Below, one piece after another: positions 1,870-62,811 of a stretch of DNA of 64,000 nt. Source of the stretch: Nocardiopsis sp. CNR-923 (lineage in GTDB: Bacteria > Actinomycetota > Actinomycetes > Streptosporangiales > Streptosporangiaceae); contig NZ_MKKC01000076.1 in assembly GCF_001942255.1 (NCBI RefSeq), positions 159,693-223,692 of the forward strand, read 5' to 3'. The notes below the pieces were generated by a model, which worked only from the letters and a program-made list of their open reading frames with translations, was not told the DNA's origin and ran no database searches. Numbering within the stretch: position 1 is the stretch's first letter; every line of letters starts with the position of its first letter. Position numbers and translations under genes: made by a program.

Positions 1870-2606
1870 ATGCCGATCGACCCCAGCAACCCGCTCCCGA
1901 AGTACAGTCAGCTCCGCGACCTGCTCCTGGACTGGATCACGGAGTCGGGTCTGGGCGTGGACGACATGATCCCCTCCGAGCGCGAACTGAGCGCCGTCTA
2001 CCAGCTGTCGCGCATGACCGTGCGCCAGACCATCGACCTGCTCGTGTCCGAGGGGCGCCTGTACCGCGTCCCGGGCAAGGGCACCTTCATCGCCCGCCCC
2101 AAGATCGAGATGTCCCTCGTCCTGGCCTCCTTCAGCGAGGACATGCGCGCCCGCGGCTACGAGCCCGCGCCCGGGAGCTGATCCGCCAGGTCATCCCGGC
2201 CAGCGGGCACACCGCCCGCATGCTCGACATCGCGCCCGGCACGCTGGTCCACCACATCGAGCGGATGCGCACCGCCGACGACGAGCCCATGGCGGTGGAG
2301 CGCTCCAACATCGCGGCGGCGATGGTGCCGGGGCTGGAGGACTACGACCTCGCCGTGCGCTCCCTGTACGAGGTGCTGGAGAACGAGTACGACATCCTCC
2401 TGGACTCCGGCGAGCAGACGATCGAGGCGGGGATCTGCGACTCCGCGGACTCCCGCCTGCTCGGCCTGCCCGCCGGCAGCCCGGTGCTGGTGATGCAGCG
2501 CCGGAGCTTCGCGAAGGGGCAGTGCGTGGAGTTGGCGCTGTCCACCTACCGCGCCGACCGCTACCAGCTGCACTCCAGGCTGGACCCCCGGCGGCACGGA
2601 GACTGA
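1870..2606 (+). CDS. GntR/HutC-family regulator (DasR-like), frame broken near 2166
   Basis: The N-terminal part (1870-2181) is a GntR winged helix: IPSERELSAVYQLSRMTVRQ then GKGTFIARP near residue 75. The C-terminal part (from about 2163, another frame) is a UTRA ligand-binding domain of the HutC type, with RSFAKGQCVELALSTYRADR near the end. Restoring one G, so that GAGCCCGCGCCC becomes GAGCCCGGCGCCC, joins them as GYEPGARELIRQV and gives 245 residues, the normal family length. It probably senses a sugar phosphate and controls the SIS gene and the EIIC gene 41 bases downstream. GAGAAGG lies upstream of the ATG. The break is more likely a sequence error than real decay, since both halves are fully conserved in style. 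Confidence 0.85.
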
Positions 2607-2647
2607 TTCCCCCGCGCCCACGGGGCGCACGTCCGTGGAAGGCCCCC

Positions 2648-4027
2648 ATGAGTCCGGACATATCCTCCACACCGTCAGCGCGGAACACGGCGCCCGAGAA
2701 GCGGTCCTCCACGACGCTGGCGGTCCTGCAACGCCTCGGCCGCAGCATGATGATGCCGATCGCGGTCCTGCCCGCCGCCGCCCTGCTCCTGCGACTGGGC
2801 CAGCCGGACCTCCTGGGCGCCGAAGGTGTGGCGAGCTGGCCCGGGATGGGCTGGATGACGACCGTCTCCGGCGTGGTCGGCGCCGCGGGCGACTCGCTGT
2901 TCCAGGCGATGCCGCTGCTCTTCGCGGTCGGTGTGGCGATCGGCTTCGCCAAACGCGCGGACGGGTCGACCGCGCTGGCGGCCCTGGTCGGCTACCTGGT
3001 CTTCGACCGGGTGTCCAAGCTGCTCTTCTTCGAGCAGGGCGGCGAGATCGGCGAGCGCGTCACCTTCGGCGCCGCGGGCGAGGCGGTGGTCAACTGGGGT
3101 GTGAAGAACCCCAGCGACGTGCTGGGCGGCATCGTCATCGGCATCGTCACGGCGCTGCTGTGGCAGCGCTACCACCGGATCAAGCTGCCGACCTGGCTGG
3201 GCTTCTTCGGCGGGCGCCGCTTCGTGCCCATCCTCATGGCGGGCGTCGCCACCCTGATCGCCGTGGTCTTCGGTCTGGTCTGGCCGACGGTCGGCGGGTG
3301 GATCAACGACTTCGGCACGTGGATCATCGGACTGGGCTCGGTCGGCGCGGGCGTCTACGGCGTGGTCAACCGCCTGCTGCTGCCGCTCGGCCTGCACCAC
3401 ATCGTCAACTCGGTCGTGTGGTTCGTGTTCGGCGAGTACACCGACCCCGAGTCGGGCGACGTGTTCCTGGGCGAGATCAACCGCTACCTGGCCGGCGACC
3501 CCACGGCCGGCGGCTTCCTGTCCGGATTCTTCCCCGTGCTGATGTTCGGTCTGCCGGGCGCGGCGTTGGCGATCTGGCGTTGCGCGCACCCGTCGCAGCG
3601 CAAGGAGATCGGCAGCCTCATGGTGGCGGCGGCGCTCACGGCGTTCGTCACGGGCATCACCGAGCCGATCGAGTACGCGTTCATCTTCGTCGCGCCCGTG
3701 CTGTTCGCCGTGCACATCGTGCTGACGGGCATCTCGATGGCGGTCCTCAACGCCCTGGACGCCCACCTTGGCTTCGGCTTCTCCGCGGGAGCGATCGACC
3801 TGCTCATCAACGCGACGAAGTCCAACACGACGGGGCTGTTGTGGATCCTGGCGCTGGGGATCGGCTACTTCTTCCTCTACTACTTCGTGTTCACCTTCCT
3901 CATCCGGAAGATGAACCTGCCCACGCCGGGCCGTGAGCCCGCCGAGGACGACGCGACGGCCGGGGCCGACGCCGTAGCCTCGGAAACCGGAGCCGCGGGC
4001 GGGGAGAGGGGCGACCGCGCCGACTGA
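2648..4027 (+). CDS. PTS EIIC permease, GlcNAc/glucose family
   Basis: A 459-residue integral membrane EIIC of the glucose/N-acetylglucosamine class. It opens LQRLGRSMMMPIAVLPAAAL, has about ten hydrophobic segments, the GLHHIVNS segment and the conserved TGITEPIEYAFIF loop, and ends in an acidic Ala/Glu tail. It moves and phosphorylates the sugar using phosphate from EIIB. The ATG at 2648 is preceded by GGAAGG; the open frame runs further upstream but overlaps the GntR gene. Being next to a DasR-like regulator and a SIS enzyme points to an amino sugar such as GlcNAc rather than glucose. That is inference, as the two specificities cannot be told apart by eye. Confidence 0.88.
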   Translation: MSPDISSTPSARNTAPEKRSSTTLAVLQRLGRSMMMPIAVLPAAALLLRLGQPDLLGAEGVASWPGMGWMTTVSGVVGAAGDSLFQAMPLLFAVGVAIGFAKRADGSTALAALVGYLVFDRVSKLLFFEQGGEIGERVTFGAAGEAVVNWGVKNPSDVLGGIVIGIVTALLWQRYHRIKLPTWLGFFGGRRFVPILMAGVATLIAVVFGLVWPTVGGWINDFGTWIIGLGSVGAGVYGVVNRLLLPLGLHHIVNSVVWFVFGEYTDPESGDVFLGEINRYLAGDPTAGGFLSGFFPVLMFGLPGAALAIWRCAHPSQRKEIGSLMVAAALTAFVTGITEPIEYAFIFVAPVLFAVHIVLTGISMAVLNALDAHLGFGFSAGAIDLLINATKSNTTGLLWILALGIGYFFLYYFVFTFLIRKMNLPTPGREPAEDDATAGADAVASETGAAGGERGDRAD

Positions 4028-4134
4028 TCCGCCCCCGGCGGAGTCCGGCGGTGAGGAACGCGGCGACGCCGGGTCTCCTCACCGCGGTCGGCTCCGAATG
4101 GAGAGTGCGGACAACCCTCTGGAAAGGCGAAACG

Positions 4135-61441: not shown

Positions 61442-61514
61442 GGCGGTCCCAGAATACGCGGCCACCGTCGTCCACAGCCGCGATCCACCCCCTCCCCTCC
61501 TCCCCCAACCCCGA

Positions 61515-61520
61515 TAACCT
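61515..61520 (+). promoter_or_regulatory. Candidate -10 of aroA (leaderless)
   Basis: TAACCT stands six bases before the ATG at 61527, with no ribosome site. It fits the leaderless pattern seen at several other genes in the window. Confidence 0.4.
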
Positions 61521-61526
61521 TGAGTC

Positions 61527-62811
61527 ATGCCTGACACCGCGTCCCCGCAGCCCGCCGCCCACTGGCCCGCCCCGACCGTCCAGCGCCCGGTGAGCGCGCG
61601 ACTGTCCCTGCCCGGCTCCAAGTCGGTCACCAACCGGGCGCTCGTGCTGGCCGCGCTCTCGGAGACGCCGTGCCTCGTGCGCCGTCCGCTCGCCAGCCGG
61701 GACAGCGAACTGATGATCGGCGCGCTGCGCGCCCTGGGCGTGGGGATCACCGCGCAGGGCGAGGACCTCGCGGTCGCCCCGGCCGCGCTGCGCGGTCCGG
61801 CGTCCGTCGACGTCGGCAACGCCGGGACCGTCATGCGCTTCGTTCCGCCGCTCGCGGCCCTCGCCTCCGGCGACGTCCACTTCGACGGGGACCCGCGTGC
61901 CCGGGAGCGGCCCGTCGACGAGCTGCTCAACGCGCTGCGCGCCCTCGGGACGGACATCGACGACGGCGGACGCGGCGCCCTGCCCATGACCATCCACGGC
62001 GCCGGAGCCGTTCCCGGCGGTGAGGTCACCCTGGACGCCTCCGGTTCGTCCCAGTTCGTGTCCGCTCTCCTCCTCAGCGCGCCCGGTTCACCGAGGGCGT
62101 GCACGTCCGGCACGAGGGGCCGCCGGTGCCCTCCCAGCCGCACCTGGACATGACGGTGGAGATGCTCCGCGCCGTCGGCGTGTCCGTGACCACCGGGGAG
62201 AACTCCTGGAGGGTGGCTCCGGGGCCGGTCAAGGCCACGGAGATCACGGTGGAGCCCGACCTGTCCAACGCAGCGCCGTTCCTGGCCGCCGCGCTGATCA
62301 CGGGCGGCGAGGTCACCGTCGAGGGGTGGCCCGAGCACACCACCCAGCCCGGCGACGAGCTGCGCTCCCTCTTCACCCGGATGGGCGGCGAGGTGTCCCG
62401 GTCAGGCGATGACCTCACCCTGCGCGGAACCGGGGGGATCAACGGCATCACGGCCGACCTGCGTGACGTCGCGAGCTCACACCGACCATCGCCGCGGTGG
62501 CGGCCCTGGCCGACTCGCCCTCCCGGCTCACCGGGATCGCGCACCTGCGCCGCCACGAGACCGACCGCATCGCCGCGCTCGCCGCCGAGATCAACCACCT
62601 GGGAGGGGACGTCCAGGAGCTGCCGGACGGCCTGGTCATCCGGCCGCGGCCCCTCCACGGAGGCGTGTTCCACTCCTACGACGACCACCGGATGGCCACG
62701 TCCGGGGCCGTGATCGGGCTGTCGGTGCCCGGGGTGGAGGTGGAGAACATCGCCACCACGCGCAAGACGCTGCCCGACTTCCCCGGCCTGTGGGCGGAGG
62801 CCCTCGCATGA
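61527..62811 (+). CDS. aroA: 5-enolpyruvylshikimate-3-phosphate synthase, frame broken near 62089 and 62473
   Basis: EPSP synthase of the shikimate pathway. Frame 1 has LPGSKSVTNRALVLAALSET, SRDSELMIGALRALG, VDVGNAGTVMRFVPPLAALA and GSSQFVSALLLSA. Frame 2 has EGPPVPSQPHLDMTVEMLRA and DLSNAAPFLAAALITGGEVT. Frame 3 has LRRHETDRIAALAAEINHLG, SYDDHRMATSGAVIGLSVPG and KTLPDFPGLWAEALA. Restoring one base near 62089 (AGCGCCGCCCGG) and one near 62473 (GTCGCGGAGCTC) gives 428 residues. An essential gene in a prototroph, so these are almost surely errors. Its stop overlaps the rsgA start. Confidence 0.95.

What the first reader, a model, noticed from the sequence alone, without database searches (positions are those of the whole stretch)
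2160..62480. Many genes broken by single-base losses, about half at GGCGCC
About 20 apparent one-base losses interrupt at least 16 genes. When each is repaired to keep the family sequence, about ten repaired sites read GGCGCC: near 2166, 12533, 13867, 22271, 26788, 30894, 34183, 36435, 59698 and 61095; 29045 is GGGCGCC. The others (4921, 6450, 16407, 42992, 50007, 62089, 62473, two near 4300) are also GC-rich. Losses in secA, aroA, mtrB and ahcY argue for sequence error, not decay. A link to one hexamer suggests a systematic cause, for example a GC hairpin or a modified base in GGCGCC that misleads base calling, which would imply a GGCGCC methyltransferase in the host. Many GGCGCC sites elsewhere in the window are intact.
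Basis: partly seen in the sequence, partly recalled or inferred. Interest (0 to 1): 0.7.

Follow-up and report, generated by a model that had tools for sequence, protein, structure and literature searches.

The report
Missing bases betray GRCGYC DNA marks
Dozens of genes in this draft genome of a Nocardiopsis-like bacterium are broken by one missing letter; the breaks are likely sequencing errors, and many fall on the second letter of one degenerate palindrome, GRCGYC, as would happen if the living cell carried a (predicted, untested) chemical mark there that fooled the sequencer.

Summary
The broken genes are really in the sequence as held, and the problem runs through the genome sample. Against proteins of a congener, 94 one-base losses and 3 gains hit 83 of 307 genes on five contigs; the same kind of search on four other congeners left none after the same filters. 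SecA, MtrB, AhcY and AroA are among those hit, so these are almost certainly consensus sequencing errors, not decay. They are not homopolymer errors: by the fit about 68 of 94 are in GG/CC doublets and none in G/C runs of 5 or more, whereas the congener G013 shows the classic long-homopolymer pattern. GGCGCC is only part of the rule. The core is GRCGYC, and the lost base is the R at position 2. Without any learned prior, 25 of 94 losses fall there against 52 of 2960 simulated losses; a fitted model gives about 37 of 94. A 3' SG boosts the rate, to 17% of CGGCGYCCG sites. Likely cause: cytosine methylation of GRCGYC misread by the base caller. One C5-methyltransferase hit was found, on a prophage-like contig; its specificity is untested. 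A purely sequence-driven base-caller fault is the main rival. About 57 of 94 losses remain outside the motif.

The parts
2160..2172 (+). one-base loss in a GntR-like regulator gene; GRCGYC type (GGCGCC)
   Evidence: 4 congeners; prior-free 0.99; name from the congener's protein, matches below the curated cut-offs
4912..4924 (-). one-base loss in secA, not GRCGYC
   Evidence: (5 congeners)
6447..6459 (-). one-base loss in secA, not GRCGYC
   Evidence: (5 congeners)
12526..12538 (-). one-base loss in an unnamed gene beside mtrB; GRCGYC only with learned rates (0.93; prior-free 0.13)
   Evidence: (3 congeners); not among the good events
13859..13874 (-). one-base loss in mtrB; GRCGYC type (GGCGCC)
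   Evidence: 5 congeners; prior-free 0.96
26779..26794 (+). one-base loss in an RDD-family gene; GRCGYC only with learned rates (0.78)
   Evidence: (5 congeners)
29041..29053 (-). one-base loss in ahcY; GRCGYC type (GGCGCC)
   Evidence: 5 congeners; prior-free 1.0; the single-reference fit put it outside GGCGYC doublets (0.0)
30883..30898 (+). one-base loss in a gene without family match; not GRCGYC
   Evidence: (5 congeners)
34175..34190 (-). one-base loss in the phosphomannomutase/phosphoglucomutase gene; GRCGYC type (GGCGTC)
   Evidence: 5 congeners; prior-free 1.0
36428..36443 (-). one-base loss in a DUF5719 gene; GRCGYC only with learned rates (0.55)
   Evidence: (5 congeners)
42989..43001 (-). 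one-base loss in a gene without family match; not GRCGYC
   Evidence: (3 congeners)
49998..50013 (+). one-base loss in a sigma-70-like gene; not GRCGYC
   Evidence: (2 congeners)
59654..59741 (+). one-base loss in a cyclophilin-type isomerase gene, place uncertain; GRCGYC only with learned rates
   Evidence: (2 congeners at 59660, one at 59735)
61084..61108 (-). one-base loss in a class V aminotransferase gene; not GRCGYC
   Evidence: (5 congeners)
62072..62084 (+). one-base loss in aroA; GRCGYC type (GGCGCC)
   Evidence: 5 congeners; prior-free 1.0
62464..62476 (+). one-base loss in aroA; not GRCGYC
   Evidence: (5 congeners)

Best explanation
The missing bases are likely consensus sequencing errors, and a large share of them sit on the second base of GRCGYC sites, where a predicted cytosine methylation would make the base caller drop one base. 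Shown: losses far outnumber gains (94 to 3), none is left in four congeners after the same filters, they lie on five contigs, the lost base is the R of GRCGYC, and a 3' SG and a 5' C boost the rate. Inferred: that the reads were native (unamplified) DNA on a signal-based platform, that a GRCGYC-specific cytosine methyltransferase is active in this strain, and that the modified C next to the R shifts the signal so that R is skipped in enough reads to win the consensus. The methyltransferase could be the C5 enzyme whose pieces lie on the prophage-like contig C81, but nothing here ties it to GRCGYC. The remaining losses (about 57 of 94), mostly in other short G/C runs, would be ordinary residual error of the same assembly.
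For: 94 losses to 3 gains in 83 of 307 genes over 345,783 nt; four congeners 0 good events in 273,044 nt by the same method (6 raw calls dropped there, 7 on C75). Fitted: 67.6 of 94 in GG/CC doublets, 0.0 in 942 G/C runs of 5 or more. One-class gain: GGCGYC 46.6, GGCGCC 26.8, GGCGTC 17.7, GGCGRC 0.0 nats; adding A-loss in GACGYC gains 5.4 more, any G[A]C only 0.1. Dinucleotide before CGYCSG, lost/intact: GG 22.6/385, GA 7.1/287, AG 1.0/131, CG 0/613, CA 0/255, CT 0/354, GT 0/376, TG 0/137, AT 0/141. Y strict: 0 lost, 150 intact with a purine there in otherwise perfect sites. Prior-free: 25 of 94 against 52 of 2960 simulated losses; 14 of 46 on C75, 11 of 48 on other contigs. G013, with another error type, 0.0 loss at 539 GGCGYC doublets. 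M.BsaHI methylates the central C of GRCGYC (PMC2413257, passages read).
Against: No reads, platform or modification data are held. The context is not a clean hexamer: flanks change the rate over tenfold; without the SG flank GG.CGYC loses only 6.7 against 1152 and GA.CGYC 0 against 1446; one-mismatch neighbours of GGCGYC lose about 2.5 per 1000 (up to 5.6) against 0.56 for other GG, as a k-mer effect would give. In an approximate scan C[GG]CGHC ranked first of 357 and C[GG]CGYC second. More than half of the losses lie outside the motif. Published methylation-induced nanopore errors that I read about are R/Y ambiguities, not losses (PMC11610573, passages). No excess of substitutions at GRCGYC in aligned genes (intact ratio 0.751 against 0.724 for all NNCGNN). 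No RE_HindVP endonuclease in 60 genomes, though that search had no positive control. Only one C5-methyltransferase hit, broken, on a prophage-like contig.
Confidence: 0.6

Rival explanations
1. A sequence-intrinsic base-caller or polisher fault: the k-mer around C[GG]CGYCSG is read one base short on this platform whatever the strain, with no modified base.
For: Strong flank dependence (17% at CGGCGYCCG; almost nothing without SG), graded one-mismatch rates, more than half of the losses in other short runs.
Against: The required letters match a degenerate palindrome: G, then A or G, CG, C or T, C. GT, CA, CG and CT before CGYCSG give 0 lost against 1598 intact together, and a purine in the Y place 0 against 150. 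The lost base can be A as well as G, which a doublet-collapse fault would not give.
Confidence: 0.3
2. Homopolymer undercalling of long-read or flow-based sequencing.
For: Losses far exceed gains, as in the congener G013 (75 losses, 3 gains).
Against: In G013 55.6 of 75 losses lie in G/C runs of 5 or more (172 per 1000 such runs); in this genome 0.0 in 942 such runs.
Confidence: 0.04
3. GC hairpin compression at GGCGCC or CGG-CGY-CCG.
For: The best 9-mer, CGGCGYCCG, could fold as a 3-bp stem with a CGY loop; CGG-nnn-CCG without the motif still loses 4.4 against 1033, above other GG.
Against: Same stems with other loops are nearly spared: besides that, CGG-nn-CCG 0 against 883, CGG-nnnn-CCG 0 against 769, GG-CGR-CCG 0 against 263, while GG-CGY-CCG loses 20 against 156.
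Confidence: 0.02
4. Real mutations: gene decay or a mutational hotspot at GRCGYC in the living strain.
For: The sequence as held does carry the broken frames.
Against: SecA (two breaks), MtrB, AhcY and AroA (two breaks) are hit, 83 of 307 genes sampled are broken, and losses outnumber gains 94 to 3.
Confidence: 0.03

Closest known systems
Methylation-induced nanopore consensus errors (Lohde et al. 2024, PMC11610573)
   Same: Strain-dependent systematic errors at short motifs, ascribed there to nearby methylation.
   Different: Those reported are purine/pyrimidine ambiguities (passages read); here they are one-base losses at GRCGYC, and the platform is unknown.
BsaHI / HgiDI / HgiGI restriction-modification family, recognising GRCGYC (PMC2413257)
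   Same: Same degenerate palindrome; M.BsaHI methylates the central C, next to the base lost here (passages read).
   Different: No endonuclease of the HindVP family (PF09519) found in this genome, without a positive control; no methyltransferase here shown to have this specificity.
GGCGCC restriction enzyme NdaI of Nocardia (Nocardiopsis) dassonvillei
   Same: Recalled only: a GGCGCC enzyme from the same genus.
   Different: Comes from no call; one literature search listed no paper; and the motif here is wider than GGCGCC.
Homopolymer losses of long-read assemblies, here presumed for congener G013
   Same: One-base losses that break many genes.
   Different: G013 loses bases in G/C runs of 5 or more, this genome does not.

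Membership tests
Systematic consensus sequencing error | Essential-type genes broken; relatives intact; one error type dominates | tested here: met
   94 losses to 3 gains in 83 of 307 genes; 0 good events in 4 congeners; secA, mtrB, ahcY, aroA hit
Systematic consensus sequencing error | Accurate independent reads show the intact frame | not testable with these tools
   no reads held
Homopolymer undercalling | Loss rate rises with run length | tested here: not met
   G1 0.03, G2 1.51, G3 0.77, G4 0.60, G5 or more 0.03 per 1000
Error caused by GRCGYC modification | Losses enriched at a degenerate palindrome, all four variants hit | tested here: met
   prior-free hits GGCGCC 11, GGCGTC 10, GACGCC 3, GACGTC 1 of 94, against 52 of 2960 simulated; about 57 of 94 losses lie elsewhere
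Error caused by GRCGYC modification | Modified base present at GRCGYC in native DNA | not testable with these tools
   no raw signal held
Error caused by GRCGYC modification | A cytosine methyltransferase gene in the genome | tested here: met
   one PF00145 hit, C81:22167-22646, frame-broken; N4/N6-type genes with TSPPY on C132 and C68; intact function not shown for any
BsaHI/HgiDI-type restriction-modification | Methyltransferase with GRCGYC TL motifs in its target domain | not tested
   the target domain would lie in the broken middle of the C81 gene; pieces were searched apart and not joined
BsaHI/HgiDI-type restriction-modification | RE_HindVP-type endonuclease | tested here: inconclusive
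   0 of 60 genomes including this one, and 0 of 14 control genomes, so no positive control
GC hairpin compression | Loss depends on the stem, not on the loop letters | tested here: not met
   GG-CGR-CCG 0 against 263 intact; GG-CGY-CCG 20 against 156

The most novel reading that the evidence does not exclude
A public draft assembly, with no raw signal at hand, still carries a readable methylome: its one-base losses spell out the specificity of an active GRCGYC cytosine methyltransferase in a Nocardiopsis strain, possibly a prophage-borne orphan enzyme, so other frame-broken drafts could be mined for modification motifs in the same way.
Probability: 0.5. Interest if true: 0.55.

Novelty: new variant of a known kind. 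Interest (0 to 1): 0.38.

Why it matters
It warns that gene content read from this draft understates the organism: 83 of 307 sampled genes are broken, most likely on paper only. If the modification reading holds, error patterns in deposited assemblies become a cheap way to infer methyltransferase specificity where raw reads are gone, and base-caller training could target GRCGYC in GC-rich actinomycetes.

Tried and rejected
Rejected after tests: GGCGCC alone (it ranked 27th of 300 in a first one-short hexamer scan); CGGCG or C[GG]C as the unit (gains 25.3 and 16.0 against 46.6; CGGCGYC with 45.5 is practically as good as GGCGYC); homopolymers; hairpins; excess substitutions at the site; a second clear motif among the rest (only weak signals such as CGTC[GG], 5.2 against 0.65 expected, some just after a GACGTC). 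The first context tallies favoured CGCG-like remains and gave GGCGCC only 5.1 of 46; they are superseded by the likelihood fits. The motif was chosen after several scans on the same 94 losses, so the nats are optimistic; the prior-free counts outside C75 (11 of 48) are the fairer check, although those contigs also fed the fits.

Led nowhere: naming the platform; literature on loss-type errors at this motif (searches: two listed no paper, and no title or abstract start in the others names it; I read passages of PMC11649196, PMC11610573, PMC8565308 and PMC2413257 only); finding a matching endonuclease; PADLOC labels for the three methyltransferase candidates, which were generic type II and orphan methylases plus some Druantia, DISARM and MADS methylase models among the best 25 shown for each.
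Full report
What the window is. The window is the last 64 kb of contig C75 (223,692 bases) of a 5.55 Mb draft in 152 contigs, 91.3% complete. A 512-residue open piece of its SecA is 91% identical to that of Nocardiopsis alba DSM 43377; the next of the 80 loci kept was 75% (nearer records may be left out by that tool). In one search, 18 of the 30 relatives belong to the same genus.

Are the broken genes real? I called genes on the congener G018 by codon usage and aligned their proteins to DNA with an aligner that allows one-base frame changes. 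On the whole of C75, 156 genes and 177,832 nt gave 46 losses and 1 gain in 43 genes; the same proteins against four other congeners gave 0 good events in 73,864, 73,761, 71,929 and 53,490 nt (54 raw calls on C75 and 3, 0, 3 and 0 on the controls before the identity and edge filters). Taking further contigs, 307 genes and 345,783 nt gave 94 losses and 3 gains in 83 genes: C75 46/1, C66 8/0, C126 5/0, C22 10/0, C130 25/2. Six other fetched contigs or parts added one comparable gene (on C68) and no event. Genes under half covered, scoring under 150 or under 50% identical were dropped. Losses are spread along C75: 2, 3, 7, 2, 7, 6, 3, 5, 5, 6 per tenth. Simulated single losses were found in 2991 of 2995 cases, 95% of them placed within -5 to +4 nt.

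In the window itself, proteins of five congeners support 16 losses. Genes hit include secA (twice), mtrB, ahcY, aroA (twice), a phosphomannomutase, a GntR-like regulator, a cyclophilin, a class V aminotransferase, a sigma-70-like factor, an RDD and a DUF5719 protein (families of the congener's proteins). A living bacterium is not expected to lack all of these, and losses almost without gains are not what decay looks like; I conclude sequence error.

What sets the places? For each loss I scored every single-base placement nearby by fit to the congener's codons and fitted loss rates per context class by EM. About 67.6 of 94 losses fall in GG/CC doublets (1.5 per 1000), 8.6 in triplets, 1.7 in runs of 4, 0.0 in 942 runs of 5 or more. 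The congener G013 (2 contigs, 84% complete) gave 75 losses and 3 gains in 129,944 nt, of which 55.6 lie in G/C runs of 5 or more, 172 per 1000 such runs. So the two assemblies suffer from different faults.

Among doublets, the best one-class model tried was GGCGYC: 32.3 losses against 1537 intact, gain 46.6 nats over run length alone; CGGCGYC gives 45.5, GGCGCC 26.8, GGCGTC 17.7, GGCGRC 0.0. In an approximate scan over 357 scored patterns C[GG]CGHC came first and C[GG]CGYC second, but a later fit gave A at the Y place 0 losses against 79 intact in otherwise perfect sites. Separate rates per 1000: GGCGCC 19.9, GGCGTC 16.5, one-mismatch neighbours about 2.5 (0 to 5.6), other GG 0.56. Loss of A in GACGYC adds 5.4 nats, while loss of A in any GAC adds 0.1. 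With SG downstream, the dinucleotide before CGYC must be GG (22.6 lost, 385 intact) or GA (7.1, 287); AG gives 1.0 against 131, and CG, CA, CT, GT, TG, TA, TT, AA and AT none; without SG, GG gives 6.7 against 1152 and GA 0 against 1446. The lost base is thus the R of GRCGYC, in favourable flanks: 19.6 of about 117 CGGCGYCCG sites are lost, 17%.

Is this more than my choice of classes? With a flat prior, 25 of 94 losses have more than half of their weight on the R of GRCGYC (GGCGCC 11, GGCGTC 10, GACGCC 3, GACGTC 1), 14 of 46 on C75 and 11 of 48 elsewhere, against 52 of 2960 simulated uniform losses; in those simulations 38 of 59 true sites were recognised and 14 of 2901 others miscalled. Corrected for that sensitivity the share is about 40% (inference), in line with 37.3 of 94 from the fit. 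The rest, 54 losses with little weight on the motif, show no second clear motif.

Mechanism. The match to a degenerate palindrome of a known methyltransferase specificity, the loss of either A or G at one place, and the absence of any rise with run length beyond doublets make a modified cytosine beside that place the most likely cause. M.BsaHI methylates the central C of GRCGYC (PMC2413257, passages read), and H. influenzae Rd is listed with methylated GRCGYC (PMC8565308, one passage). Published methylation errors of nanopore consensus that I read about are of the R/Y kind (PMC11610573, passages). That reads were native and signal-based is inferred; no reads are held. A plain k-mer fault of the platform remains possible, and the strong flank effect and the many losses outside the motif speak for it. 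I found no excess of substitutions at GRCGYC.

Candidate enzyme. One C5-methyltransferase hit exists in the genome, C81:22167-22646, with a stop inside. Its N-terminal piece matches Dcm/PF00145, M.HhaI best among solved structures and actinophage methylases at 51-56% identity in the 12 rows listed; it sits near a terminase-like, a primase-like and an HNH-like protein, the first and last below Pfam's cut-offs, so the contig looks like a prophage. Two further genes, on C132 beside an integrase and on C68, carry TSPPY, recalled as typical of N4-cytosine enzymes. None is tied to GRCGYC. No RE_HindVP endonuclease was found in 60 genomes, without a positive control.

Verdict on the finding. The broken genes and a palindrome-linked systematic cause are confirmed; the hexamer is widened to GRCGYC, the share is smaller than claimed for GGCGCC, the hairpin is not supported, and the methyltransferase is predicted, not shown.

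Noticed in passing
window 9910-10176 (-): A raiA RNA, 139.3 bits, the only Rfam family over its gathering score in the window.
   Followed up: no
G013:C1:984001-1164000 (L146-L154): A congener assembly of 2 contigs with 75 one-base losses in 129,944 coding nt, mostly in G/C runs of 5 or more: a homopolymer artefact in a species representative.
   Followed up: partly
L131 (G000:C81:15001-30000), 3018-7685: Prophage-like stretch with terminase-like, primase-like and HNH-like genes and a frame-broken C5-methyltransferase.
   Followed up: partly
L133 (G000:C68:65001-78000), 8723-10971: TSPPY-type DNA methyltransferase next to a 347-residue open frame without Pfam or PADLOC match; a possible defence island.
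   Followed up: partly
L132 (G000:C132:1-8500), 3288-7549: Integrase gene beside a TSPPY-type methyltransferase and a second weak methylase-like frame: probably an integrating element.
   Followed up: no
G000 losses outside GRCGYC: About 5 remaining GG losses follow CGTC directly (0.65 expected), a few of them just after a GACGTC site; unexplained.
   Followed up: no
window 37888-37900: An apparent one-base gain seen against three congeners, not among the losses and not pursued.
   Followed up: no
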